64,000 bases of DNA, taken from NCBI GenBank assembly GCA_026261815.1, contig JAMPIT010000697.1:1-64000 (forward strand). Direction: 5' to 3'. The translations under genes and the position numbers were made by a program. The stretch is from Monarcha castaneiventris obscurior. Lineage: Eukaryota > Chordata > Aves > Passeriformes > Monarchidae. How positions within the stretch are numbered: the stretch's first letter is position 1; the number at the start of each line of letters is the position of its first letter. The notes beneath the pieces were generated by a model. It did no database searches. It was not told where the DNA came from and worked only from the letters and a program-made list of their open reading frames with translations. Shown piece after piece: positions 36,378-62,200 of this stretch.

Positions 36378-36656
36378 GAACCTCATGGGACCAAAGGTCC
36401 GTTGTGACACTGTGGGGCCCTGTGGAACCAAGGGGACCACAGTGACATTTCAGGGCTTCATGGAACAATGGAGACCATTATGACACTTTGGGACCCACTG
36501 GAACCATGGGGCCATTGTGACACTGCAGGGCCTCATGGAATCAAGGGGACCACAGTGACACTGTGGGGCTCCATGGAATGAAGGGTCCATTCTGACACCG
36601 TGGAACCAAGGAGACCATTGTTGCACTAAAGGGCATCTTGGAACCAAGGAAGCCAT
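36378..36656 (+). repeat. 37-bp repeat block
   Basis: Seven to eight degenerate units ('ccattgtgacactgcagg', 'gcctcatggaatcaagggg') between the ERV LTR and the next LTR-like element. Confidence 0.85.
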
Positions 36657-37150
36657 TGTCAGGAAAAGTAATCCACAAACACCAGAGGTTTATGTCCAAA
36701 AAAGGAGACAGAGGAGTCCCATTACTTTATTTGAATAAAGGGAGAGGCCATGGGGCATTCCCCTGGGGTCTCTCTAGTTGTTAGAGGATGTAGCCTCATT
36801 TCTCTCCGAATTTCCTGGCCGCATTTCCCTCTCTATTCCCCCATTGGCTGAAGTACTTGAGAGGTACAGACTTCTCAAATCACTTAATACAGACCCCCAT
36901 CTAATGTAAAATCCTGCCTTTTTCTTTTCCTATGGAATTTATGGTTCTTCCCATTGCTGCTTTCATCTCTCAGGATCTATCTTTACCTATCAGCAGACCC
37001 CCAGTTGGTTTGTAAAGACAAATCCCTCTCACTCCATTCATCAGTCAGTGGAATTCCTCCCACTGTTTCTTTGACCTCTCAGTATCTAGCTTTTACCTAT
37101 CAGCAGACCCACAGTTTGTTTGTAAAGACAAATCTATCTCATTCCTTTCA
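36657..37150 (-). mobile_element. probable solo LTR with internal duplication
   Basis: About 490 bp unlike the surrounding 37-bp repeats, starting near TGTCAGG. It carries AATAAA on the - strand (tttatt at about 36726). A segment of about 110 bp is repeated inside: 'tttacctatcagcagaccc' and 'gtttgtaaagacaaatc' occur twice (around 36983 and 37094). Ends and target duplication are not resolved. Confidence 0.5.
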
Positions 37151-37989
37151 CCAGTATGAGCCAGTGGGGCTTCATGGAACCATGCAGAGCATTGTGACAC
37201 TCTGAGGCCTCGTGGAACCAAAGGACCATTGTGGCCCTGCAGGGCCTCGTGAACCAAGGGCACAATAGTGACACTGTGAGGCTCCAAGGGACCAAGGGGG
37301 CATTCTTACGCTGCAGAACCAAGGGTCCATTGTGGCAGCAGGGCCTCAAGAAACCATGGAGGCCATTTTTACACTTTGAGGCCTTGCGAAACCAAAGGGC
37401 CATTGTGGCACTTCAGGGCCTTGTGGAGCCAAGGGGACCACAGTGACACTGTGGGGCTCAATGGAACCAAGGGGCCATTGTGACACTGTGGGGTCTCATG
37501 GAGCCAATGGTTTGTTGTGACATTGCAGAGCCTTATGGAATCATGGAGACTATTGTGACACCACAGGCCTCACTGAACCAAGGGGCCATTGAGACACTTT
37601 GCAGCCCCATGAAACAAAGGAGTCCATTGTGATACTACAGGGCCCCATGAAACTAAGAATTCATGTAACGGTGTGGGGACTCATGGAATCCAAGGTCCAA
37701 TGTGGTATTGCAGGGCCTCATGGAATCCTGAAGACCATGATGACACTTTGAGGCCTTGTTGAATCAAGGGGCTCCGCAGGACCTTGTGGAACCAAGGAGA
37801 CCCTTCTGACATTGTGAATCCCTATGGAACCAAGAGTCCATTGTGATGCTGTGGCACCAAGGAGACCCCTGTGACACTGCAAGGCCTCATGGAAGCAAGG
37901 GGGGACCATTGTGACACTATGGGGCCCCATGGAAACAAGGGGCCAGTGTGACAGAGCAAGGCCTCATGGAACCAAGGGAATAGGCAACA
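37151..37989 (+). repeat. 37-bp tandem repeat array
   Basis: About 22 degenerate units. Ends at 'ggaaccaagggaataggcaacagg', followed by 190-bp repeat sequence, the same 37-to-190 junction seen elsewhere. Confidence 0.88.
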
Positions 37990-38500
37990 GGTGTGGTTGA
38001 CTTGGCCTGACTGGTCCAACTGACCTTGGCACATCAAGGGTCTCTTTCATGTGCCCCTGAAACACTGGGGTTCTGGGTTTTTCTTCAGTGGGAAAAGAAC
38101 TGTCCTTGTCATCCAGGCATCCGTGGCTGAAATGGGATTCTGCCTCCAAAATTGCCCATATCCAGGGATTGCTCCTAGACAAAAGCTGCCATTGCCAACA
38201 AGTCTGGCTGCACTTGGCTTCCTGAAGCTGGCTCTCACTTGCCTTCAAACACTGGGGCTCTGTGTTTTCCTTCCTATGGAAAAGAACTGTCCTGCCTGTC
38301 CAGGCACCCACGGCCAAAATTGGTACTTCTCTTCCAAAGTTCCCTATATGCAAGAGTTTCTCCCAGACACAAAAAAAGGAGCTGTAAGGACAGACAGCTC
38401 TGGCTGCCCTTGGCCTCTGGTTGTTGCCTCTAATCTGCCCCTGAAACACTGGGGCTCTGTGCTGTTCTTCCTATGGGAAAGAACCATCCCTGACCAGGTA
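37990..38500 (+). repeat. 190-bp tandem repeat block (orphan)
   Basis: About two and a half divergent monomers with no OR module after them. It ends near 'gggaaagaaccatccctgacc'. Confidence 0.8.
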
Positions 38501-39639
38501 TTGGGAGAGTCCCAGACTGGTCAGGCTCAGCAGGGAAGGGGAGGTGGCAAATCCTCCTGCAGCCAATCCAGGCCCTGGCAGGACAAGGCAGGGATTGCAG
38601 AGCCCCTGTGGGAGGGAAAAGAAGGGGATGTTGTGTGCCCACACTTCAGCCAGGCCTGTGCCAGGCTCTGCTGGGGTCTCCTCAGAGCCAGGTTGGTGAG
38701 AGCTGGGCTGAAGAAATGGAACATGGGGTGGGTGGGAATTTGGCTGAACAATGAGGCTCAAATGTCATCCATGGTACAGAGTCCTCTTGGCAGCCACTCC
38801 CTGGTGACATCCCTCAGTGAGCAGCCCTTGACCACCACTGTGGAACATTTCTATGGTCTCTACAATGGGATGAAATGCACTTTCAACACCTTTGTGGATG
38901 CTGCCAAGTTGCAGGGAGTCTGTGACCAAACTCATCTAGTTAATGGTGGCTGCAAAACATAATTGGGCAAGAGGACTGAGCTGCATAAATTTGTCTTGCC
39001 ATCAGGTGCCAACCAATCCACAAGAAAAGGAAGAAAAACCTTATGTATTAGAAGAAAGGCAATTCAGTAGGGACAAAAACCAAAACGCAGCCAAAAATAC
39101 CAAAGCAAAACCCACCCACAATACAATAAAATCCCCACAAACAAACCAACCACAAAAAGCAAAGGCCACTAACAGAAGCAAAGGAAATCCACAGGAAATC
39201 TCTTATCAGCTGAAAATGTTCAACCACCTTGTGGCAGGAGAGGATTCTGTATGTGTAGGTGCTGTTTGAAAGAAAAATGTCTTTAAAAAGAAATTAATGC
39301 CCTCCATCCCCTGCTTCTCTCAGTTGATTGCTGATCATTGTGTGACATGGAATGGAACATCCCTTGGGTCAGTCCAGCCCAGCTGCTCCATCCCTGTTCC
39401 CTCAGGAACACTTGCCCACCCCAAGCCCACTGGCTTTGGGGGGTTGCAGACACCCCTCGTGTGGGGCGAGCACTGTGACAAGGACAGGAGAACAGAACAA
39501 CATGAACTCTTATCAAGGACAGGAGAACAGAACAGCACAGCCTTGGAGAAACAGATAAAGGATGTAACTCAGGCAAACAGAAGTCCCACAGAACACAAGC
39601 AGGATTCCATCTCAGCTCTGCAAGGCTGACAAAGCAGGA
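38501..39639. other. no recognisable gene
   Basis: Unassigned. Includes an A-rich stretch (39060-39200) and a tandem pair of 'aaggacaggagaacagaaca' (39479 and 39516). A + strand frame at 38051-38962 is mostly 190-bp repeat and is not supported as a gene. Confidence 0.4.
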
Positions 39640-39978
39640 ATTATGCAAAACAACGATACTGCCCTTACTGAAAAGCGGGGGTCAAGAAACAGCCCCCTAA
39701 AAAAGGACACCGGATGTTGAAGACAGACCCCAAACAACCATATAAGGACTTGCAATAAGGGGTACAACTATGTCAAATAAAGTCAAAGGAAATGGTGATA
39801 GCTAATGAATATGTAATCAGTGTGTCTGATAAAAACTCTGTTCCGCAATGCTCAGTGCACTCAAATGGAGGAAGGATCACCCGAGTGACCACCATGCTGT
39901 AATAAAGAATAGCTGCTTTCAAATACTCAAAACTGTGTGAGAAGGTTTCTCTCCAGCAGATTTCAGTTATCAGTGATG
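39640..39978 (+). mobile_element. probable LTR fragment
   Basis: The stretch has 'catataaggacttgc' (TATA-like, near 39740) and AATAAAG about 160 bp later (39901), then ends near 'ccagcagatttcag' where 37-bp satellite begins. The arrangement is that of a retroviral U3-R-U5. The left end and target duplication are not defined. Confidence 0.45.
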
Positions 39979-39984
39979 TCCTTG

Positions 39985-41215
39985 ATTCCATTATGCCCCA
40001 CAGTTTCACAATGGCTCCCTGGTTTCAGGAGGCCCTGCTGTATAACAATGGACCCTTGGTTCCATTAGGGTCCATACTGTCAAAATGGCCTCCTTGGTTC
40101 TGCACTGCCACAATGCTCTCCTTGGTTCCAGGAGGCCTTGGTGTGTCACAACGGCCCCTTGGTTCCATGAACTTCCATAGTGTCACCACGGTCTCTTGGA
40201 TCCGCAGTATTGCAGTCGGTTACAAGCAGCCCCACTGTGTCACAATGAATATTTGGGTCCACAGGGCCCCACAGTGTCACAATGGACCCTTGGTTCCTTG
40301 TGGTCTGTACCATCAACAATTGTCTCCTTGGTTCCGTAGTGTGAAAATGGCCCATTGGTTCCATAAGGTTCCTCAGTGTGCTCTCCTTGGCTCCATGAGG
40401 CTCTGCAGTGTCACAATGTCCCAAAGTTTCCATGAGTTTCATTACTAACAACAATGTCCTTTTTCCATCGAGGCCCACAGTGTCATAGTGGCTCCTTGGT
40501 TCCATAAGGCCCCAGAGTTCCACAATGATCTCCTTGATTCAATGAAGCCCCACAGTGTCACAATGGCCCCTTGGTTCCATGAGGCCCTGCTGTGTCACAA
40601 GGGCCCCTTGGTTTCATACGTTTTATACTGTAACAATGGAATCCTTGGTTCTATGGGCTACCCTGCTCTTTGCAGTGCTTTCTTTGGTTCCAGCAAGGCT
40701 CCACTGTGTCTCAAGGCACCCTTGGTTCCATGAGGATCTGGAGTATCACAAAGGCTCCTTGGTTCCACGAAGTCCTGCTGTGTTGCAATGGATCCTCTGT
40801 TCCAGGAGGCCCTACAGAGTCATAAATGGATTCTTGGTTCTATGAGGTTCCATCGTGTCCCAGTGGTCACCTTGGTTACATGAGTTTCCTTAGTGTCACA
40901 GTGCTCTCCATGGTTCCATCAGGCCCTGCTCTGTCACAATGGTCCCCTTGGTTCCAGCGAGGCCCTGCTGGGCCACAAAGGACCCTTGGTTCCATGAGGC
41001 CCCGCTGTGTCAGAGTGGACCGATTTTTCCATGAAGTTCCATAGTGTCACCATGGTCTCCTTGGCTCTGTGAGGCCCTGCAGGGTCACAATGGACGTATG
41101 GTTCCATGAGGTTCCCTAGTGTCACCATGGTCTCCTTGAATCCACAGTGTAACAATGGACCCTTGGTTCCATGAGGCCTGGCAGAGTCACAGGGGTCTCC
41201 TTGGTTCCATGAGGA
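39985..41215 (-). repeat. 37-bp tandem repeat array
   Basis: About 33 degenerate units in reverse orientation ('ggttccatgaggccctgc', 'tgtcacaatggcccctt'). This is one of the two longest blocks in the window. Confidence 0.9.
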
Positions 41216-42369
41216 TACAAAAGCTTTGCATAAACACTGAGCAACACCTGCTGAACACACCTGGGAACATCTGCTTGCATCAAAAGAGGGCTTAAAGCTG
41301 AGAATGGCACCAGCAGCTTCCATCTGCAACAGAGACCCAGGGAAAGCACAGGGACAGAGAATTCAGCTGAAAGACTCAGAGAATGCTGCTCACAGAGATC
41401 ATTCCTGGTCCACTGTCCCTTGTAGAAAGGTGACATCATTCCAGGCAGCCTGTATTGAGCATGGGGTTCCTGAGTGGGGTTTGTTGTTCAGGAAACCTGC
41501 TCAGGCTTTTCCATTCTTTCCTTCCAAACAGGAAAACTTCTCCTGGGCCTGTGTGCAGGCAGAGCCCTGAGGAGAGCAGGTGGGGCATGGTGCAGTGGGC
41601 TGGGACACACAGCTGCAGAGCTCAGGGACAAGGTTCTGATGCAGGGAACAGGGATGTCAGTGCCAGGTGGGCGATGTCAGACATGCTGAGGTTGGGGGCG
41701 AGGAGCAGCTTGTCCAAACAGGGTCAGCCTGCAAGAGGCTCATTCTTCTCCGTGCCCAGACCTCCTAAGGAGACATTCAGCATCCAGATCACTTGGGGAA
41801 TGCTTCTGTCACCTCTTCTCTGAACTGGAAAACAAAACAAACACTCAGTTCATTAAAAAACAAAAAGTCATGAGGTGCACTTTGAAATCTCCATCCTTTA
41901 CAGAACTCCAAACTGACTCCAATCAGCTGCACAAGCCCTGGAGACTTGAAGACAATTCAAGGAAGACAAGGAGCTCCTGAGGGCTTTCTGTATTTTAAGG
42001 AGCCCCACCAGTGAATTTGGGGCTGAGTCCAGGACCCTCAGGCTCTGAGAGAATGATGAAGAAGTTGCTCAAGGAGTCAGAAGCCAAACTCCAAGTCCCT
42101 TGGAGCACCAATGGGCCCCACTGAGGGCAGGGACTGCCAAAGCCTCCCCAGGGACTCATGAGAGCAGATCCTTGAGCTGTGCTAGGATTGCAGGGAGCCA
42201 AAGGCTCTGAGCAGGGAACTGCAATGCTGAGAAAGCCCTGGGCTGCTTGGAGGAAGCAGAAAGGCCCAGCCCTGAGCCCAGGCCTGGCACAGCAGGACCT
42301 GTCCCTCCCGGGTGGCTCGGGGCTCTTTGTGGGGCAGTGGGATGTGAGGGGGAGGAAGGACAAATGCCA
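41216..42369. other. no recognisable gene
   Basis: Unassigned sequence. I found no domain, LTR ends or tandem array. Confidence 0.4.
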
Positions 42370-42430
42370 TAAACCTGTGTGACCCTCCAGATCCTCATGG
42401 AACCGAGGGGCCAGTGTGACACTGTGGGGC

Positions 42431-43022
42431 TGTAACACCCCAGAACACTCAAATGCTGGGGGTAACCCAAGGCTCCTTGACTCCAGTTTGGTGCACAGGA
42501 GAAACACCAACCAGATATTCTCAAGATGTCAAAATGGCGCAGAATTTGCTTGTTGGAAACCATGGCAAACTTAGGCAAAGCATTTTATACAACATCCAAT
42601 TCCACAAAAAACACTAATCCTAGCATTAACTTTACTGACTTAAGCATTTGACCTAGAAACCTTTAAACCCTTAGGATGTTAAGTCAGCAAGAAATCTTCC
42701 CGGTTCAGAGGATTAGAAAAAGAAAAAAGACAGAAAGACAGGAGATCTATAGAAAGACACACACAGAGCTACCAATTCCCAGGGTTTCAGCATGGGTGAC
42801 AGAAACTCCAGAAAAAGGCAGGGTCCAGACCAGGGACAGATCTCGTGCTCCATCTTTTAACTCCCTGGGCCCTTCGTGGGCGTCCTGCCAGGTGGGACTT
42901 CTGGTTGGTCACCCAATCAGGGGCTGGGTTAGCACTGCCTATTGCGTGATTGATTGATTGATTGATTGATTGACAGCTCATCCCAAGATGACTCCAGACA
43001 TTGATCTCATCCAGCCTCTGAC
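42431..43022. mobile_element. possible LTR insertion within a 37-bp repeat block
   Basis: About 590 bp of non-satellite sequence sits between 37-bp repeat on the left (to 42430) and on the right (from about 43025). It begins TGTAACACCCC and has 'caaaatggcgc' and 'ttttatacaaca' phrases of LTR type. Right end and target duplication are not resolved. Confidence 0.4.
42947..42973. repeat. (GATT)n microsatellite
   Basis: Nearly seven perfect GATT units. Confidence 0.95.
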
Positions 43023-43029
43023 AGCGACC

Positions 43030-43466
43030 ATGGTGACACTGCAGAACCTCATGGAACCAAAGGGCCTCTGTGACACATCAAGGCCTCAGTGGAACAAAGG
43101 AACTGTTGTTGACAGCACAGAAACTCATGGAACCAAGGGGCCACTGTGACAATGCAGATCCAGGGGCACCATGGGGACACTGTGGAACCTCATGGAACCA
43201 CAGAGACCATTGTGACACTCTGGTGCCTCGTGGAATCAAGGAGAGCATTGTGAAACTCAGGGGCCCTGTGGAACCAAGGGTCAGTGATCAAACTCTGGGG
43301 CCCATAGAAGCAAGGAGCCACAGGGACACTGTTGGGCCCCATGGAGCCAAGGGGCCATTGGGACACTTCAGGGCTTTGTGGAACCAAGGGGCCATTGGGA
43401 CATTGCAAGGCCTCATGGAAGCAAGGGGCCATTGTGACCCTGTGGGGCCCCGTGAAACCAAGGGAA
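43030..43466 (+). repeat. 37-bp tandem repeat array, unit D
   Basis: About 12 units leading into the 190-bp array at 'ccaagggaacatggaacagc', the same junction as at position 40-46 of unit A. Confidence 0.9.
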
Positions 43467-45049
43467 CATGGAACAGCTCTGGCTGGCTTGGCCTCCCGGG
43501 GGCCACCTGACAGGTCTGTCTGACTTTGGCATGTCGAGGGCCACTGCTCATCTGCCCCTGCAGCACTGGGGCTCTGTGCTTTCCTTCCTGTGGAAAAGAA
43601 CCGTCTTTCTCCTTCAGGTGTCCATGGCCAAAATTGGAATTCTTCCTCATAATTTCCATCTGTCCAAGCTTTGTGCCCTGTTGAAGTCTGCCAGGACAGA
43701 CAGATCTGGCTGGCTTGGCCACCTGGGGGCCACCTCTCATCTGCCTTTGAAACTCTGGGACCATGTGCTTTTCTTTCCGATGGGATAAAAGCACCTTCCA
43801 CATCCAGGTGCCCATGGCCAAAATTGGGAATCTGCCTCCAGAATTCCCTATATCCAAGGATAGCTCCCAGACAAAAACTGCCAGGACTGACAAGTCTGGC
43901 TGGCCTTGGCTTCCTGAGGGCTGACTCTCATCTGCCTTTGAAGCACTGGGGCTCTGTGCTTTCCTTCCTAATGAAAGGAACTCTTCTTTCTGTCCAGGAA
44001 CCTAAGGCAAAATTGAGATTCCACCTCCAAAATTCCCTATATCCAAGGATTTCCCCCAGATGAAAGGTGCCAGGAGAGACAGGTCTGGCTGGCTTGGTCT
44101 GGGTAGCCACCTCTCATCTTCTTCCAAAACATTTGGACTTTGCACTTACATTTCCTATGGGAAAACCCGTCCATCTCGACCATGCGCCCATGGCCAACAA
44201 TGGGATTCCAACTCCAACACTCTGCACATCCAAGGATTTCTCCCAAGTGAAAGCTGCCAGGACCCTTGGCCTTCGCACTTTTTCTTCTGATGGAAAAGAA
44301 CCATCCTTCTCATCCAGGCACCCATGACAGAAATTTGGATTCCATTTCCAAAATTCTATATATCCAAGGATTGCTCCCGCATGAAAGCTGCCATTACAGA
44401 CAGGTCTGGCTGTCCTTGGCCTCTTGGGGGCTGCCTCTCAGCTCCTTTTGAAACACTGGGGCTCGGTGCTTTCCTTCCAATGGAAAAGAACCGTCATTCT
44501 TGTCAAGGTATCCATGGTCGAAATTGAGATTCTGCCTCTCAAATTCTGTGTATCCAAGGATTCCTCTGTGACAAAAGCTGCCAGGAGAAACAGGTCTGGC
44601 TGGCCTTGGCTTCCCAGGAGCAATCTCTCATCTGCCTTTGAAGCACTGGGGCTCTGTGCTTTCCTTTCTGTGGAAAGAACTGTATTACTTACAAACGCAA
44701 AATGGCCAAAGTTGGGATTCCACCTCCAAAATTCCCTATATCCAAGGGTTTCTTTCAGCCAAAAGCTTCCAGGATACAGGGGTCTGTCTGGCCTTGGCCT
44801 CTGATGGCCGCCTTTACCTTGCCCCTGAAACACCAGTGTATCGTGCTTTCCTTCCTATGGAAAAGAACCGTCCTTCTACTCCAAGTGTCCCTGTCCGAAA
44901 TTGGGATTCTGCCTCTAAAATTCCTTGAATCCAGGGATTGCTCGCAGACAAAATCTGCCAGTACTGTCTAGTCTGGCTGGCCTTGGCCCCTGGTGACTGC
45001 CCCTCATCTGCCCCTGAAGCCCTGGGGCTCGGTTGTTTCCTTCCTATGG
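43467..45049 (+). repeat. 190-bp tandem repeat array, unit D first block
   Basis: About eight to nine monomers; adjacent 'ctgccagga' landmarks are about 189 bp apart (43885 and 44074). This is the longest uninterrupted run in the window and the best reference for the unit. Confidence 0.92.
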
Positions 45050-45250
45050 AGACCATGGGGACACGGTGAGGACCTTGTGGAACCATGGAGACCATAATGA
45101 CACCTCGGGGCCCTGTGAAATGAAGGGGCCATTGTGACACTGCGGGGCACCGTGGATCCATGGAGAGCATTGTGGCATTGCAAGGCCCCATGGAATTGTG
45201 GAGACCATTGTGACCCTGTGGGGCCCCATGGAACCAAGAGAACATGGAAC
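45050..45250 (+). repeat. 37-bp repeat block inside unit D
   Basis: Near-identical to 1491-1690. Confidence 0.85.
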
Positions 45251-51954: not shown

Positions 51955-52300
51955 CACATGAGACCAAGGTGACCCTGTGACACTGCAGGGCCTCATGGTG
52001 CCCAGGGGCCATTGTGACACTGTGGGGGACATGGAACCAAGAGGCAATTGTGACACTGCAGGGCCTCATGGAACCCACAGAACCTTGTGACACTGCAGGG
52101 CCTCATGGAACCAAGGGGATCATGTGGCACTCCAGACACTCTTGGTGGCCAGGGGCCCCTGTGACACTGCAGGGCCGGGTTGAACCAAGTGTCCATTGCA
52201 ATAATGGGGCCTCATGGTGCCCAGGGGGCTCTGTGACACTGCAGGGCCTCATGGAACCAAGTGGACACTGTGACACTGCAGGGCCTTATCATCATCAATC
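51955..52300 (+). repeat. 37-bp tandem repeat array
   Basis: About nine units, many with 'gtgacactgcagggcctcatgg' nearly unchanged; one of the more uniform blocks. Confidence 0.9.
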
Positions 52301-55344: not shown

Positions 55345-56460
55345 CGGGCACCGTGTGGAACCAAGGGTCAGTTATGACACTGCGGAACCAAGGAGACTGT
55401 TGGTGGTGGTACGAAAGCCCATGGAACCAAAGGTCCATTGTGACATTGCGAGACCTCATGGAACCATGGAGACCATTATGACACTTCGGGACCCATTGGA
55501 ACCAAGGGGTCATTGTGACACTTCAGAGGTGTCATTGTAGGACGGCAGGGCCACATGGAATCAAGGGGATCGCAGTGACACTGTGGGGCTCCATGAGACC
55601 ACAGGGCCATTCTGGCTCTGTGCTACCAAGGACACCATTGTTACACTACAGGGCATCATGGAACCAAGGAGGCCATTGTGAACCAGCAGGGGAACCCGCT
55701 GAGACCATTATGACACTTCAAGGGCTTGTGACACCAAAGGGCCATTGTGGAACTGCAGGGCTCCATGGAACTAAGAACTCGTGTAACAGTGAGGAGCCCA
55801 ATGGAATCAAGGGGCCATTCTGTACTTCAGGGCTTCATGGAACTAAGGTGCCGTTGTGACACTGTGGAACCAAAAGAGACCATTGTGACACTGCGGGGCC
55901 TCATGGAATCCTGGAGACCATTATGACACTTAGAGGCCTCGTTGACTCAAGCGGCTCTGCAGGGCCTTGTGGAACCAAGGAGCCCCTTGTGACACCACAG
56001 GGCCTCACGGGGCCAGTGAGACCATTCTGATGCTGTGAGTTCCCATGGAAGCAAGGGGCCATTGTGACACTGCAAGGCCTCATGGAAGCAAGGGGCCATT
56101 GTGACACTGCAAGGCCTCATGGAAGCAAGGGGCCATTGTGACACTATGGGTGCCCATGGAGCAGGGGTTGTGACACTGCAAGGCCTATGGGCAGGGGCAT
56201 TGTGCAGCCAGGCCTTGTGGAACCAAGGGGCCATTGTGATCCTGGGGAACCCAATAGAACCGAGGGACAATTGTGACACCACAGGACCTTATGGAACCAA
56301 GGAAACCATTTTGACACTGCAGGGCCTCAGGGAAGCAAGGGGCCATTATGACATTGCTGGGCCTCATAGAAACAAGTCTCTATTGTGATACTTCAGGGCC
56401 TCATGGAACCAAGGGGCAATTGTGATGCTACGGGGCCCCAAGGATCCAAGGAACATGGAA
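55345..56460 (+). repeat. 37-bp tandem repeat array, unit E
   Basis: About 30 units. Two adjacent copies at 56054-56130 are perfect or nearly so and fix the period at 37 bp. Confidence 0.92.
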
Positions 56461-57360
56461 TAGGTCTGGTTGGCTTGGCCTCCTGGGGGCCACCTGACTG
56501 GTCCAGCTGACTGTGGAACGTTGAGGGTTGCTTCTCATCTGCCCCTGAAACCCTGTAGCTCTGTGCTTTACTTCCTCTGGGAAAGAACTGTCCTCCTACA
56601 GGGGCCCGTGGCCAAAACTGGGATTCTATCTCCAAATTTGATTATATCCAAGGATTGTTCCCATATGAAACCTGCCAAGACAGACAGTTCTGGCTGGCTT
56701 TGGCCTCTTGGGGCCTCCTCCCATCTGCCTTTAAAACACTGGGGTGCCTGTGCTTTTCTTCAAATGGAAAAAAAACCATCTTTCAAGTCCAGGCATCCAT
56801 GGCCAAAACTGGGAAGCCGCCTCCAAAATTCCTTATATCCAAGCATAGCTCCCAGACAAAAGCTGCCTGGAATGTCCAGGTTCCCTTGGCTTCCTGAGGC
56901 CAGCTCTCATCTGCCTTTGAAACACTGGGGCTCTGTACTTTCCTTCTTGTAGAAAAGAACTGTCCTTCCTATCCAGATGCCCATGGACAAAACTGGGATT
57001 GGGCTTCCCAAATTCCATCTATCCAAGGACTGCTCCCATAAAACAGCTGCCAAGACAAACAGGTCTGGCTGGCCTTGGCGTCCATGGGGCCACCTCTAAT
57101 CGGCCTTTGAAACACCGGGGCTCCATATTTTCCTTCCTGTGGGGAAGAACTGTCTTTCAGGTACAGGCACCCACAGCTGAAATGGAGTTCCACCTCCCAA
57201 CCTTCCCATAAATCCAAGGGCTGCTTTCAGGCAAAAGCTGCAAAGAAAGACAGGTCTGGCCTGCCTTGGTCTCTGGTGACTGCCTCTCATCTGCCTTCAA
57301 AACACTGGGGTTCTTTGGTTTCTTTCCTGGGTAAAAGAATCGTCCTTGTCCAGGTGCCCA
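56461..57360 (+). repeat. 190-bp tandem repeat array, unit E
   Basis: About five monomers, more diverged than those of unit D. Confidence 0.88.
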
Positions 57361-57884
57361 TGTCCTCAAGCCCATGACCACTACATAGGGACAAAGGAGC
57401 TCTGTGCTCAGTGGAGTGGAGACTGAGGACAGCAGAGGAGAGCCCTGGGAGGGATTGAAGAGTGGTTTCAGAGTTCGTGGATCCTCTTGACATAGTAGAG
57501 AACAGCTGGAGAAAGAAAGAATTCATGCCAAGGGCAGCTGGGGAGATCCAGACTATATAAGAAGAGAAAGGAATTTCTGTCCCAGGACAGGGCTGTGGTG
57601 CAACACGTCCCCCAGAAGGAGTCTGGAGCAGCCCAAGGCTTTGTGTGCCCAGGCAGAGGCAGGCAGGACGCAGAGCTGCCAGCAAAGGAAGGGGCCAGCG
57701 AGCTGGGGCAGCCGGGGGGATGACGACAGCCTGCAGGGACAGAGGCGCAGGGCAGGGACACCGTGGCACAGCCTGGGCTGGAGAGGGCACAGGGATGGGC
57801 AGCAGCTGCAAGGCCCTGCCAGAGCCAACTTGTGCAGCACTTTGGCCACGGCTGCTGGCCCTGGGCCTGAGGCCAGCAGGAGAC
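57361..57884 (+). repeat. OR-upstream module, copy E, left part
   Basis: Corresponds to about 2396-2912 of copy A. Ends at the first GGAGAC of the retroviral target duplication (57879-57884); module sequence resumes at 61799. The TATA-like site reads TACATA, as in unit D. Confidence 0.8.
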
Positions 57885-58249
57885 TGATGCCTCTCGGTAT
57901 GTGAGGCAATGGCGACCTGGTTCAAGAACCCAGCACGGCAGCTCGGCCTAGCCCCCCGAGCTGCTCGGACCACAGACACACAGCACCAATATGGCAGATG
58001 GTCAAAATGGCGCTTTATTGTTCTACTTCGTGGGGTTATATAGTCGAGGTGGTTTCTCTACGTCAGGAGGGGGGACGGTGGGATGGTAAAAGTTAGTAAG
58101 GGGTGGAAAGCTACTGGGGTTATGAAGGGCTGTATTGTTTAGAGTAACTCTTATCACAGAGGAATGAAGGGGAGGAAGGTTACACGCTGCTTTCTGCTTT
58201 CCGTCACATCACGAAATCTTCCGTTCGCTCTTGTCCCTGTTTTACTACA
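57885..58249 (-). mobile_element. ERV 3' LTR (365 bp)
   Basis: TGTAGTA...GGCATCA on the - strand. TATATAA at 58042-58036 and AATAAA at 58019-58014 are spaced about 20 bp apart. Differs from the 5' LTR at 57896, 58062, 58223 and 58242. Confidence 0.93.
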
Positions 58250-58266
58250 TTTCCCCCCCTCCCTTT
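58250..58266 (-). other. polypurine tract
   Basis: AAAGGGAGGGGGGGAAA on the - strand, directly next to the 3' LTR, the normal place for second-strand priming. Confidence 0.92.
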
Positions 58267-58373
58267 ACAAAAGAACGAGGTAGCCATACATACAGGCATA
58301 AAGATGAGGCACAAGGTAGCAACCTGAGAAGAGGAAGGCGTTTGGTACACGTGAGTAGTGTGTACAGTTTTGT

Positions 58374-61028
58374 TCACAGCATTTGTTGGTGGCCTAAAAA
58401 CAGAATGTTGGCCCGTTCTAGACGGGTCTGGACAAAAGAGACCAGTTTGTTCAGCAGGCACGGTCCAAAGGTAAAAGTTAAAAGTAACATTGCTAATGGA
58501 CTTATTAAGGTGGAAATCAGTGTGGTGAGCCATGGCGATTGATTGAACCAGGACTCAAACCAACTCTGCTGAGCTTCCCTGTCTTTCTGTCTCTGAGCCA
58601 GTCTATCTCGGAGTTCTGCCATGGAGTCTCTGACGACTCCCGTGTGATCTGCATAAAAGCAGCATTCCTCTTTCAAGGCAGCACACAAGCCCCGCTGTTG
58701 CATGAACAAGAGGTCCAGACCTCGCCTGTTCTGTAAGACTACCTCTGAAAGTGAGGAAACTGATTTTTCCAGAAAGGAGATGGATTTCTCGATTCTCTGC
58801 AAGTCCTCATCGATTGTCATTTGTAGCTGAGACAGTCCTTGGTGTCGGGTCGCAAGGGCTGAGACACCCGTGGCCGTTCTGGCTGCTCCCAGGCCAAGCA
58901 GCATTGCAATAGTGATGCCTGTTATTAATTCTCTCTTGTGGCGTCGGCCGGGTTCCTCAAAAAGGTGGTACACCTCCTCGTCTGAATGGTACAGGACCCT
59001 AGGAACAATTAGAACTTGGACACAAAAATCAGTAGAATCATTGAACTTGGTAAGAGACACACAAGGACTCACTCCAGATCGCTGACAAACCCACATCCCA
59101 GATGCAGAGGGAACCACCCACTTATTTTTTCTGTTGGGCTTGACAACTTTGGTGCAGATGTTGCCTTTCTTTGCTAAAGTTGCATTGCCAAAACATCTGC
59201 CCTTGCCCGTGACTTGACTCAGGGTGATTCCTCTTCGGGGAGTGTCCCACCTGCACTGGTGAGGTGCGTCGGCTGTGGAGTAACTGAAGGGGATTTCTAA
59301 AGCAATTCCTTCATAGAAAGGGGGTTTAACATCATAGCAAAGCCAGCAGGAATTAGTTAGGTTCGGGTTGGATTCGTTCAGGGATAGAAAAGTAGCTTCT
59401 AACATTAGAAAGACTGGATCTGGGTCAGATCCGGCTAGACTTATTTGGGAGGCATCTGCATGACCGATCAGGGTATCAGTGACTTCTGTGGGCAAGGCTT
59501 TGGAGTGGGTTGTGTTTTTCCCTTTCAGCACATCTTTAATAACTTTGTTGGGCCCGACCACTCGGGATGCTCGTGGCTGAAGCTTGATAATTCGCACATT
59601 CACCCACTCCTTTGACCCTTGAATGACTACTGTCCATATCCTGCCTGTGGCCCAACTAGGTTGATTTGGCTGCAAAACGGTCATGTTATAGTCAGTGCAC
59701 CTCCGAACTCTAGAGAATTTGTGACAGTTCCGATAGAATTTTTCATGAAGGACGGCGGGTTGTTTGCAACCGGTGGGTGCCCAGGTGAATTGTAAAAATT
59801 CATCGGGGTCTTGAGGTTCCCACCCAGGTCCTGATGGTCTGGCATCTGTAACAATGGTTTCACAGCCCCAGTACCCACAATATCCCCACCCCAGGTAATT
59901 GCAGTACTTTTTCCTTGGGTTTGAGGCTGGGCACCAGTAGGACAGGTGTATGCGTGTGACATGAGGGGAATAGGGGTTTATTTTTGGTTTTCCCGGGAAC
60001 AGATCGGAAATGCGAATCACAAAAGATGGGGTGTTTGGTGTGGTGGTTTCTTTGATCACCTTGTCATTTGAAAGGTGTTGCATGACCCACCTGAACGGCT
60101 GATGGGGGTAATGTTCTGGGCTGGCTTGTCCTGTGGTGACAAGCCCTAACAGCAAAATGATTTTTATTTTTCCCCAATCAGTGAATTTGTATTGTGGTTG
60201 CTTTCTGGCACGGTTTAAGGCTTTGTTCGTCTTCGCTTTAAACCGCGTTGGTCCTGCTCTCTCCGTCTCTGAGTCCGAGTCGGACTCCGAGGGCTCCGTG
60301 GAGCTTTCGCAGCTGCTCTTGCTAGGCTCAGAGTCGGAAGCGAACTGGCAAAGCACTTCCAGTTTTCTGCGCGTTTTCAGGCAGCTCCGGCCCCGCTCCT
60401 CCCCTCGGGGGTGGTGCTGATCCCGCTCCCTGGGCTGGCCCTGCCTCCCGCAGGGGGAGGTCTCTCCCTTGAATGGCAGCAGCATTGAGCACGGCTCCCG
60501 ACTGGGCACGCGCCCTCTGCTGTTCTCCCGCGCACGCGCAACAGCCAACATCCGGGGCTCACATCCGAGCATGCGCAATTCCTCCTCTCTTTGTCTCTCC
60601 TCACCGGGAACCTCCGGGCCCCGCCCCTCCTCTCGGTAGGGGGGGGGCGCCGGGACCCGCACCGTCTCCTCAGCCTCCCTCAACCCTTCTCTAGCCGTTC
60701 TTTTTACTTCCTTGGCTTCCCGTGTTAACTCCTTCCAAAATGATCCCTCAGGCTGTTGTGTTTCCAGCGGTGGGCTACCCATGTGCGGGGGGGAATCGGG
60801 TGGGGGAACCGCAGGGGTTTGGGAATGTTCCGCGGGGGGGTGTGGACCCGACGAGCTTGGCGAGAGGGTCGGGGGGTTTCCCGGGGGCCCCGGGGAATCT
60901 GGGGTCGAGCTCGAGGGGGAGGGGAGCGCGCCCGGTCCCCGCGAGTCCCCGCACTCAGAGAATCCGCTTTCTGTCTCAGTTTGCGTCGTGGCCCCCACCC
61001 CCAGCTTGGGAGTGGCCAATAGGCACAC
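58374..61028 (-). CDS. env: ERV gag-env fused open frame; full-length gamma-type envelope
   Basis: An uninterrupted frame of 884 codons. The first codon listed is GTG; the frame is open from about 61140, so the true start is uncertain (in-frame ATG at 60485 gives 703 codons). Residues 1-180: Pro/Ser-rich with the late-domain motif PPPY (128-131). Residues 181-285: Arg-rich and Ser/Asp/Glu-rich leader. Then a signal segment (IKIILLLGLVTTG), surface subunit with CWLC (561-564), five sequons in 448-663, furin site RHKR (696-699), fusion peptide (about 701-727), CX6CC (782-790) and a membrane anchor (about 833-857) with a short tail. CWLC plus CX6CC mark a gamma-type envelope with linked subunits. 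No stop or frameshift occurs in it. Confidence 0.88.
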   Translation of the reverse strand: MCLLATPKLGVGATTQTETESGFSECGDSRGPGALPSPSSSTPDSPGPPGNPPTLSPSSSGPHPPAEHSQTPAVPPPDSPPHMGSPPLETQQPEGSFWKELTREAKEVKRTAREGLREAEETVRVPAPPPYREEGRGPEVPGEERQREEELRMLGCEPRMLAVARARENSRGRVPSREPCSMLLPFKGETSPCGRQGQPRERDQHHPRGEERGRSCLKTRRKLEVLCQFASDSEPSKSSCESSTEPSESDSDSETERAGPTRFKAKTNKALNRARKQPQYKFTDWGKIKIILLLGLVTTGQASPEHYPHQPFRWVMQHLSNDKVIKETTTPNTPSFVIRISDLFPGKPKINPYSPHVTRIHLSYWCPASNPRKKYCNYLGWGYCGYWGCETIVTDARPSGPGWEPQDPDEFLQFTWAPTGCKQPAVLHEKFYRNCHKFSRVRRCTDYNMTVLQPNQPSWATGRIWTVVIQGSKEWVNVRIIKLQPRASRVVGPNKVIKDVLKGKNTTHSKALPTEVTDTLIGHADASQISLAGSDPDPVFLMLEATFLSLNESNPNLTNSCWLCYDVKPPFYEGIALEIPFSYSTADAPHQCRWDTPRRGITLSQVTGKGRCFGNATLAKKGNICTKVVKPNRKNKWVVPSASGMWVCQRSGVSPCVSLTKFNDSTDFCVQVLIVPRVLYHSDEEVYHLFEEPGRRHKRELITGITIAMLLGLGAARTATGVSALATRHQGLSQLQMTIDEDLQRIEKSISFLEKSVSSLSEVVLQNRRGLDLLFMQQRGLCAALKEECCFYADHTGVVRDSMAELRDRLAQRQKDREAQQSWFESWFNQSPWLTTLISTLISPLAMLLLTFTFGPCLLNKLVSFVQTRLERANILFLGHQQML

Positions 61029-61307
61029 GCGCGCAGCGCTCCAGATTTGTTGTTGCTCTAAAGCTTTGCGTAGGGCCTGTTCTACTTTCCCCCCCGCCTT
61101 AAGGGCTTTTCCGCTCCCTGAGGTTTTTCGTTTCCTCAGCTAATGCGGCTGTACACTTCTCCCAGATTTCTGAATGTAGTATTTCTACAGGACGACCAAT
61201 TGCTCCAAGCTCCATAAGTCTTGCAATAGCAAGATTAAAATCTTTGAGCTTGCACTCTTTCCCCACTGTTTATGAAGTAAACTCACGACCTTCGCGACAG
61301 CGTCCAT
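61029..61307 (-). pseudogene. gag: ERV gag start, matrix remnant
   Basis: An ATG at 61307, about 105 nt beyond the primer site, opens 40 codons (MDAVAKVVSLL) to a TAG at 61187-61185. The family-like pattern continues in another frame (LAIARLMELGAI, EIWEKCTAALAEE), and a third frame leads into the fused frame. At least two indels therefore break it. The profile is that of an alpha/beta-retrovirus matrix domain. Confidence 0.65.
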
Positions 61308-61411
61308 GCTTTTCGCTGGTCCGGGGACGTCTCCCCCGCTGCACTAGTCCAGCTGTGCAGCCGCCGGTGTCTCAGTCCAGGCGATCCCCAAATCCCGGGT
61401 TGTACTCAGCC

Positions 61412-61431
61412 TCCTGGGTTTTTCAGCACCA
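61412..61431 (-). other. retroviral primer binding site (tRNA-Phe-like, tentative)
   Basis: On the - strand TGGTGCTGAAAAACCCAGG follows the 5' LTR after two A bases. It resembles a tRNA-Phe primer site with an internal two-base insertion and two substitutions; the tRNA assignment is uncertain. Confidence 0.55.
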
Positions 61432-61433
61432 TT

Positions 61434-61798
61434 TGATGCCTCTCCGTATGTGAGGCAATGGCGACCTGGTTCAAGAACCCAGCACGGCAGCTCGGCCTAG
61501 CCCCCCGAGCTGCTCGGACCACAGACACACAGCACCAATATGGCAGATGGTCAAAATGGCGCTTTATTGTTCTACTTCGTGGGGTTATATAGTCGAGGTG
61601 GTTTCTCTACATCAGGAGGGGGGACGGTGGGATGGTAAAAGTTAGTAAGGGGTGGAAAGCTACTGGGGTTATGAAGGGCTGTATTGTTTAGAGTAACTCT
61701 TATCACAGAGGAATGAAGGGGAGGAAGGTTACACGCTGCTTTCTGCTTTCCGTCACATCACGAAATCTTCCATTCGCTCTTGTCCCTGTTCTACTACA
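61434..61798 (-). mobile_element. ERV 5' LTR (365 bp)
   Basis: Same length as the 3' LTR. TATATAA at 61591-61585, AATAAA at 61568-61563. Its outer end is followed by the GGAGAC duplication. Confidence 0.93.
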
Positions 61799-62200
61799 GG
61801 AGACAAGTGACCCTTGCAGCCCTGGGGCCTCAGTGCCTCCTTGGCCCTGCTCAGCAGCCTGGCAGGGGCTGCCCCATGGTGCTGCCCTTGGCATTGCACA
61901 TCCCCACATCCCAGTGCCCCGGGAAGAGCCCTGAGCACTGAGGGAGGGACAGGATGTGCCTTGCCAGGGGCTGGGGCTCAGGCCTTGGCCCTTTGCATTC
62001 CTCAAACACATCCAGCTTTGCTCAGCATCAGAGACACCTTTCCTTGCTTGTCCCCACATGTCATCACTGCCTCCAGTGTTCTGCTCTGACTGGAACCTGG
62101 GGAAACTTTGTCAGTCGTATCCCTCCATGGGACCCATTAGAACTTCAAGAAACTTTGGACTTTTCATCTGACTTTGAGTTCTTGGGAAGTTTTTTGAACA
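61799..62200 (+). repeat. OR-upstream module, copy E, right part
   Basis: Continues copy E after the retroviral insertion, matching 2910-3300 of copy A and 46471-46860 of copy D. Confidence 0.8.

What the first reader, a model, noticed from the sequence alone, without database searches (positions are those of the whole stretch)
57885..61798. Pol-less retrovirus with intact gamma-type env between matching LTRs
Seen: 365-bp LTRs with four differences, GGAGAC on both sides, primer site, polypurine tract, no pol, and an envelope with CWLC, RHKR, CX6CC and membrane anchor but no stop. An old dead provirus would normally have lost env. A short element that shed everything but env could be a trans-mobilised defective family or an env kept for host use (syncytin-like or receptor-interference role).
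Basis: partly seen in the sequence, partly recalled or inferred. Interest (0 to 1): 0.88.

Follow-up and report, generated by a model that had tools for sequence, protein, structure and literature searches.

The report
Pol-less bird retrovirus copied in trans
This is one of at least seven separately inserted copies, in one genome, of a shortened retrovirus that lost its enzyme genes and has the start of gag fused in frame to env; it was most likely spread by enzymes borrowed from full-length relatives, and its open envelope gene looks like a young neutral leftover, probably not a gene kept for the host.

Summary
In detail: a 3,914-bp minus-strand provirus, 365-bp LTRs with 4 differences, GGAGAC on both sides, no pol match, and an open MLV-type env. 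It did not shed everything but env: the first third of gag remains, and its frame runs into the env signal peptide (884-aa open frame) across a 3-base homology (ATC). An own-genome search found seven places with this exact junction, each with its own 6-bp target duplication (two with one mismatch) and unrelated flanks. The seven are no clade in leader, gag or env trees; alleles track the junction only in the last ~90 bp of gag (permutation p 0.005). This fits one deletion, spread in trans and shuffled by recombination with full-length helpers. Host use is not supported: env is open in 2 of 7 copies, dN/dS (0.28) is close to that of pol-bearing copies (0.26), and the window's private env changes (11 nonsynonymous, 5 synonymous) are near neutral. 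A second pol-less junction, which keeps the env splice acceptor, occurs at seven further places. Capsid and integrase of relatives are Rous-like and env is MLV-like, as described for TgERV-F. The new part is the multi-copy pol-less, in-frame Gag-Env lineage. Translation of the fusion is untested.

The parts
57879..57884 (.). target-site duplication GGAGAC, left copy
57885..58249 (-). 3' LTR, 365 bp
58250..58266 (-). polypurine tract
   Evidence: read
58374..60161 (-). env (signal-peptide core, SU, TM, stop), open; native leader and start absent
60159..60161 (-). gag-env junction: shared codon ATC, in frame, identical in seven copies
60162..61307 (-). gag remnant: MA (two frame breaks in this copy), PPPY, p10-like, first residues of CA; ATG at 61307
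61414..61431 (-). primer binding site, variant shared with full-length copy L058; resembles a tRNA-Phe site (recalled)
61434..61798 (-). 5' LTR, 365 bp, 4 differences from the 3' LTR
61799..61804 (.). target-site duplication GGAGAC, right copy

Best explanation
This is one of at least seven separately integrated copies of a pol-less retroviral element that arose, most likely, from a single deletion of about 4.3-4.5 kb at a 3-base homology and was likely copied by proteins supplied in trans by full-length, TgERV-F-like relatives. Shown: compared with full-length copies the deletion joins gag, at the start of CA, in frame to the hydrophobic core of the env signal peptide, and removes the stretch from CA through pol together with the env splice-acceptor-like site and leader. 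LTRs, primer site, leader and polypurine tract remain, which are the parts needed in cis (established retrovirology). Shown: the seven copies have distinct 6-bp duplications and unrelated flanks. Inferred: each therefore came by reverse transcription and integration with borrowed enzymes, and their RNAs were packaged with helper RNAs and recombined with them, which is why only the stretch beside the junction marks the lineage. Inferred: the window copy integrated roughly 2 million years ago, probably with its gag start already broken, and its env has drifted neutrally since.
For: Seven full matches across the junction (40 scored of 320 candidates); five exact and two one-mismatch 6-bp duplications; 0 of 14 flanks alike; identical junction with ATC homology; pol in 18 of 24 comparison env copies; the seven never unite in four trees; allele-junction association only beside the junction, permutation p 0.005 against 0.64 for the rest of that segment; window leader/MA nearly equal to full-length copy L058/L030, including one of its two MA frame breaks and the primer-site variant; a second pol-less junction at seven places. 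Precedent for trans-complemented defective ERVs: PMC10924933, passages seen.
Against: No helper protein, particle or RNA was seen; trans supply is inferred. Many tree supports are low (for example 46 for L044 with L002), and the permutation test ignores relatedness, so recurrence of the same deletion is not fully excluded. Family-wide private env changes (35 N, 26 S, 3 stop) have fewer N than the neutral expectation, though pol-bearing copies are similar (75, 50, 14).
Confidence: 0.84

Rival explanations
1. The same deletion happened several times at one hotspot, so the seven copies are separate deletion derivatives and not one mobile lineage.
For: The copies interleave with pol-bearing copies in all four trees, and both env variants next to the junction (TTAGGG, TTGGGG) occur in them.
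Against: Exact same base in seven copies with only a 3-base homology; one core haplotype beside the junction; known recombinant tract in the window copy.
Confidence: 0.09
2. The window env is kept for host use (syncytin-like or receptor interference).
For: Env is open although gag MA is broken; SU, cleavage-site and TM motifs are present.
Against: Private changes 11 N to 5 S against a neutral 0.68 to 0.28; env dN/dS close to that of pol-bearing copies; five of seven sister copies broken in env; native env leader and acceptor-like site lost; Gly-to-Arg changes in the fusion peptide and beside the CX6CC motif at sites conserved in the aligned relatives that cover them.
Confidence: 0.04
3. The junction is an assembly artefact.
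For: Collapsed repeats can create false joins (general knowledge; reads not available here).
Against: The same junction lies at six other places on six other contigs, with target duplications.
Confidence: 0.02

Closest known systems
TgERV-F (songbird alpharetrovirus with a gamma-type env; PMC10536682, passages seen; original paper not held)
   Same: Relatives have Rous-like capsid and integrase with an MLV-like env, in songbirds.
   Different: The lineage here lacks CA to pol and the env leader, and has an in-frame gag-env junction. No direct sequence comparison with TgERV-F was possible.
Cattle ERVK[2-1-LTR] D-type elements, with ETn/MusD and RecKoRV/KoRV as named in the same paper (PMC10924933, passages seen)
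   Same: Defective copies that keep LTRs and parts of gag and env spread with full-length helpers.
   Different: The cattle D-type carries a foreign central piece and no intact genes; here there is a clean junction and gag and env share one frame.
EAV-HP / ev-J and ART-CH of chicken (recalled; one search was a listing only)
   Same: Avian pol-deleted, multi-copy elements.
   Different: Not compared by sequence; another env type and, as far as recalled, no gag-env fusion.
Syncytins (domesticated gamma-type env)
   Same: Same type of Env by sequence (Syncytin-1 and -2 among the hits).
   Different: No sign here of host-level constraint or of one retained locus.

Membership tests
TgERV-F-like alpha/gamma recombinant retrovirus | alpharetroviral gag and pol | tested here: met
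   Integrase of relative P0010 matches Rous sarcoma virus integrase best (1.6e-56, above MMTV-type integrase entries near 1e-32); capsid of relative P0021 matches Rous sarcoma virus best. Tested on relatives, since the window lacks both.
TgERV-F-like alpha/gamma recombinant retrovirus | MLV-like gamma-type env | tested here: met
   TLV_coat 3.2e-117; MLV-related TM 6.6e-35.
TgERV-F-like alpha/gamma recombinant retrovirus | sequence clade with published TgERV-F | not testable with these tools
   Original paper and sequences not held.
Trans-mobilised (non-autonomous) ERV lineage | several independent integrations of one defective form | tested here: met
   Seven copies, separate duplications, unrelated flanks.
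Trans-mobilised (non-autonomous) ERV lineage | related full-length copies in the same genome, and recombination with them | tested here: met
   Pol in 18 of 24 comparison copies; mosaic tract with L058 and interleaved trees.
Trans-mobilised (non-autonomous) ERV lineage | enzymes demonstrably supplied in trans | not testable with these tools
   Needs experiment; referred.
Domesticated env (syncytin-like) | purifying selection on env after integration | tested here: not met
   Window private changes 11 N, 5 S; family dN/dS close to that of pol-bearing copies.
Domesticated env (syncytin-like) | expression and orthologous conservation across species | not testable with these tools
   One assembly, no RNA data.

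The most novel reading that the evidence does not exclude
The in-frame fusion is itself the working part: a defective retrovirus lineage makes Env straight from unspliced RNA as one Gag(MA-late domain)-Env polyprotein that rides in, and perhaps steers, the particles of its full-length helper. Both multi-copy pol-less lineages keep a route to Env, one by keeping the splice acceptor out of frame, the other by losing it in frame; and the three fusions seen that drop the acceptor (this one, L009 and the Prinia protein P0121) are all in frame.
Probability: 0.12. Interest if true: 0.78.

Novelty: new variant of a known kind. Interest (0 to 1): 0.48.

Why it matters
Pol-less proviruses are usually set aside as dead. 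Here sequence alone points to a pol-less deletion copied at least seven times and trading segments with its helpers, so the hitch-hiking of defective retroviruses in birds can be followed copy by copy. It also shows why an open env in a young provirus is weak evidence for host use, and it flags a Gag-Env fusion (P0121) that carries a gene-model name in annotation.

Tried and rejected
Host use of env: rejected on private-change counts, similar dN/dS and decay in sister copies. Leaning the other way: across the seven, private changes are 35 N, 26 S, 3 stop, fewer N than neutral (0.681, 0.276, 0.043), and L010 alone has 6 N, 7 S, 0 stop with its frame open; pol-bearing copies show 75, 50, 14, so I read this as a signal of the viral phase. 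Segmental duplication: rejected for the seven. Splicing as origin of the junction: rejected, since the removed stretch neither begins with GT or GC-AG fashion nor ends in AG (read). Viral-contig search: 6 pattern matches, none confirmed. Junction of L009: 1 of 40 scored (328 candidates) matches throughout, L009 itself. Rfam and tRNA scans of the window: nothing. Print: 'gag-env fusion' with 'endogenous retrovirus' 0 papers; a set on pol deletion and gag-env 0 papers; a set on non-autonomous ERVs 68 papers, 15 listed, two opened as passages, neither on such an element; so I saw no report of one, within these searches.

Full report
Observation. The window holds a 3,914-bp provirus on the minus strand, 57885-61798, with 365-bp LTRs differing at 4 positions and GGAGAC on both sides. 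An 884-aa open frame at 61028-58374 ends in a gamma-type env. The closest proteins are bird env: Taeniopygia guttata 77%, Geospiza parvula 79%, Serinus canaria 70% identity (480 hits at E <= 0.001 among 7,979 scored, best 120 listed).

What the open frame is. Aligned with relatives that carry gag (P0121, P0022, P0043, P0021), the frame begins near the end of MA, passes a PPPY motif and a p10-like stretch, reaches the start of CA (TDWGKIKI) and continues as ILLLGLV, the core of the env signal peptide. In pol-bearing copy L002 the env leader follows a splice-acceptor-like CTGTTTACAG and reads MLVGRPRN before the same core. The window element lacks all of that. Paired gag-side and env-side hits on two contigs (C467, C328) put the lost stretch at about 4.3-4.5 kb. 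Gag sides of 14 full-length copies read on from ATC into GCTTGTGC, and env sides reach ATC from TTTGT; the break falls in the shared ATC and stays in frame.

A family, not a single relic. A 201-bp query across the junction gave 7 full matches and 33 one-sided ones (40 scored of 320 candidates, so a lower bound). Target duplications: GTCTCC (window, read on the minus strand), AGCAGG (L010), AACGAG (L044), GGGGCT (L045), AGCCCC (L046) exact; L047 and L048 with one mismatch. None of 14 flanks of up to 800 bp resembles another. Six of the seven have two LTRs, differing by 4 (window), 8 (L010), 5 (L044), 2 (L047), 2 plus a gap (L045) and 3 (L048) substitutions. With recalled bird rates of 1.9-3.3e-9 per site per year this is about 1.7-2.9 million years for the window and 0.8-5.9 over the six. 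So the deletion form was itself integrated repeatedly although it encodes no enzyme.

Helpers and mosaicism. Of the 78 env matches scored (724 candidates), 53 were classified upstream: 45 with pol or integrase (one weakly), 5 with gag, 3 with neither. Of 20 copies asked for their 5' part at the full-length spacing, 14 gave gag, 1 an LTR only and 5 nothing; four of those five proved pol-less. Maximum-likelihood trees of leader/MA, two gag segments (21 rows each) and env (38 rows) never unite the seven; in env L046 falls with L033 (support 95) and L044 with L002 (46). Alleles separate the seven from full-length copies only next to the junction: mean frequency difference 0.49 at 8 sites in the last 90 columns of gag, 0.14-0.15 in the rest of that segment, 0.16 and 0.17 in the other gag segments, 0.15 in env (0.22 in its first 150 columns). 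In 5,000 label permutations p is 0.005 beside the junction and 0.64 for the rest; 0.003 and 0.46 within one subfamily of 17 rows. Permutation ignores relatedness, so these are rough. The window's U5-leader-MA tract nearly equals full-length copy L058/L030 (4 differences in 450 columns), with the same primer-site variant and one of the window's two MA frame breaks, and then diverges. The simplest reading is one deletion, then repeated co-packaging and template switching with full-length RNAs.

Is env kept? From the gag ATG the frame reaches the junction point in 2 of 7 junction copies and in 4 of 14 full-length rows (one row without a recognised ATG counted as not open). It runs to the env stop in 1 of 7 (L010, 979 aa). 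Env alone is open in 2 of 7 (window, L010). Three copies (L044, L047, L048) share a 63-bp duplication and a frame break at one aligned place, which suggests that an already broken copy was a template; alignment there is uncertain. Pooled pairwise env dN/dS: 0.280 among the seven, 0.258 among 18 pol-bearing copies, 0.276 between them, 0.371 among 6 other pol-less copies (7 rows of other subfamilies were left out). Private changes: window 11 N, 5 S, 0 stop; the neutral chance of an open window env is about 0.23. Nothing here asks for host selection.

Placement. Integrase of relative P0010 and capsid of relative P0021 match Rous sarcoma virus best, while env is MLV-like. This is the make-up described for TgERV-F (PMC10536682, passages). 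Spread of defective ERVs with helpers is documented in cattle (PMC10924933, passages).

Other fusions. A second pol-less junction, which keeps the env acceptor-like site and is not in frame in L003, is shared by L003, L035, L036, L037, L038, L042 and L105; their flanks were not compared, and L036 and L105 lie about 53 kb apart on one contig. L009 (LTRs identical over about 360 bp, duplication AGGAGT) joins gag CA to env at almost the same env bases, in frame, and appears single. Prinia subflava protein P0121 is a 1,222-aa Gag-Env gene model with another junction. The in-frame pattern is tempting, but L009 and P0121 were noticed because of long open frames or proteins, so it is biased.

Limits. 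That the host is a songbird is inferred from the nearest relatives.

Noticed in passing
L046 (C378), near the polypurine tract: This copy has a 5' LTR but no 3' LTR: the target duplication AGCCCC directly abuts the polypurine tract, as if the right LTR were precisely missing.
   Followed up: partly
L003, L035, L036, L037, L038, L042, L105: A second pol-less gag-env junction at seven places, keeping the env splice-acceptor-like site.
   Followed up: partly
L009 (C125): A young single copy with identical LTRs and another in-frame gag-env junction at almost the same env bases.
   Followed up: partly
P0121, P0022 (Prinia subflava proteins): A Gag-Env fusion is listed under gene-model names such as uncharacterized protein LOC134565166 and serine/arginine repetitive matrix protein 2-like.
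   Followed up: partly
gag p10-like region of window copies and relatives: A 63-bp unit varies in copy number among copies.
   Followed up: no
window 58377-60161, TM part: Gly-to-Arg changes in the fusion peptide and just before the CX6CC motif, at sites conserved in the aligned relatives that cover them.
   Followed up: no
window 36404-45050, 51976-52286, 55957-57158: Diverged minisatellites of about 37/75 bp and about 190 bp recur before the element.
   Followed up: no
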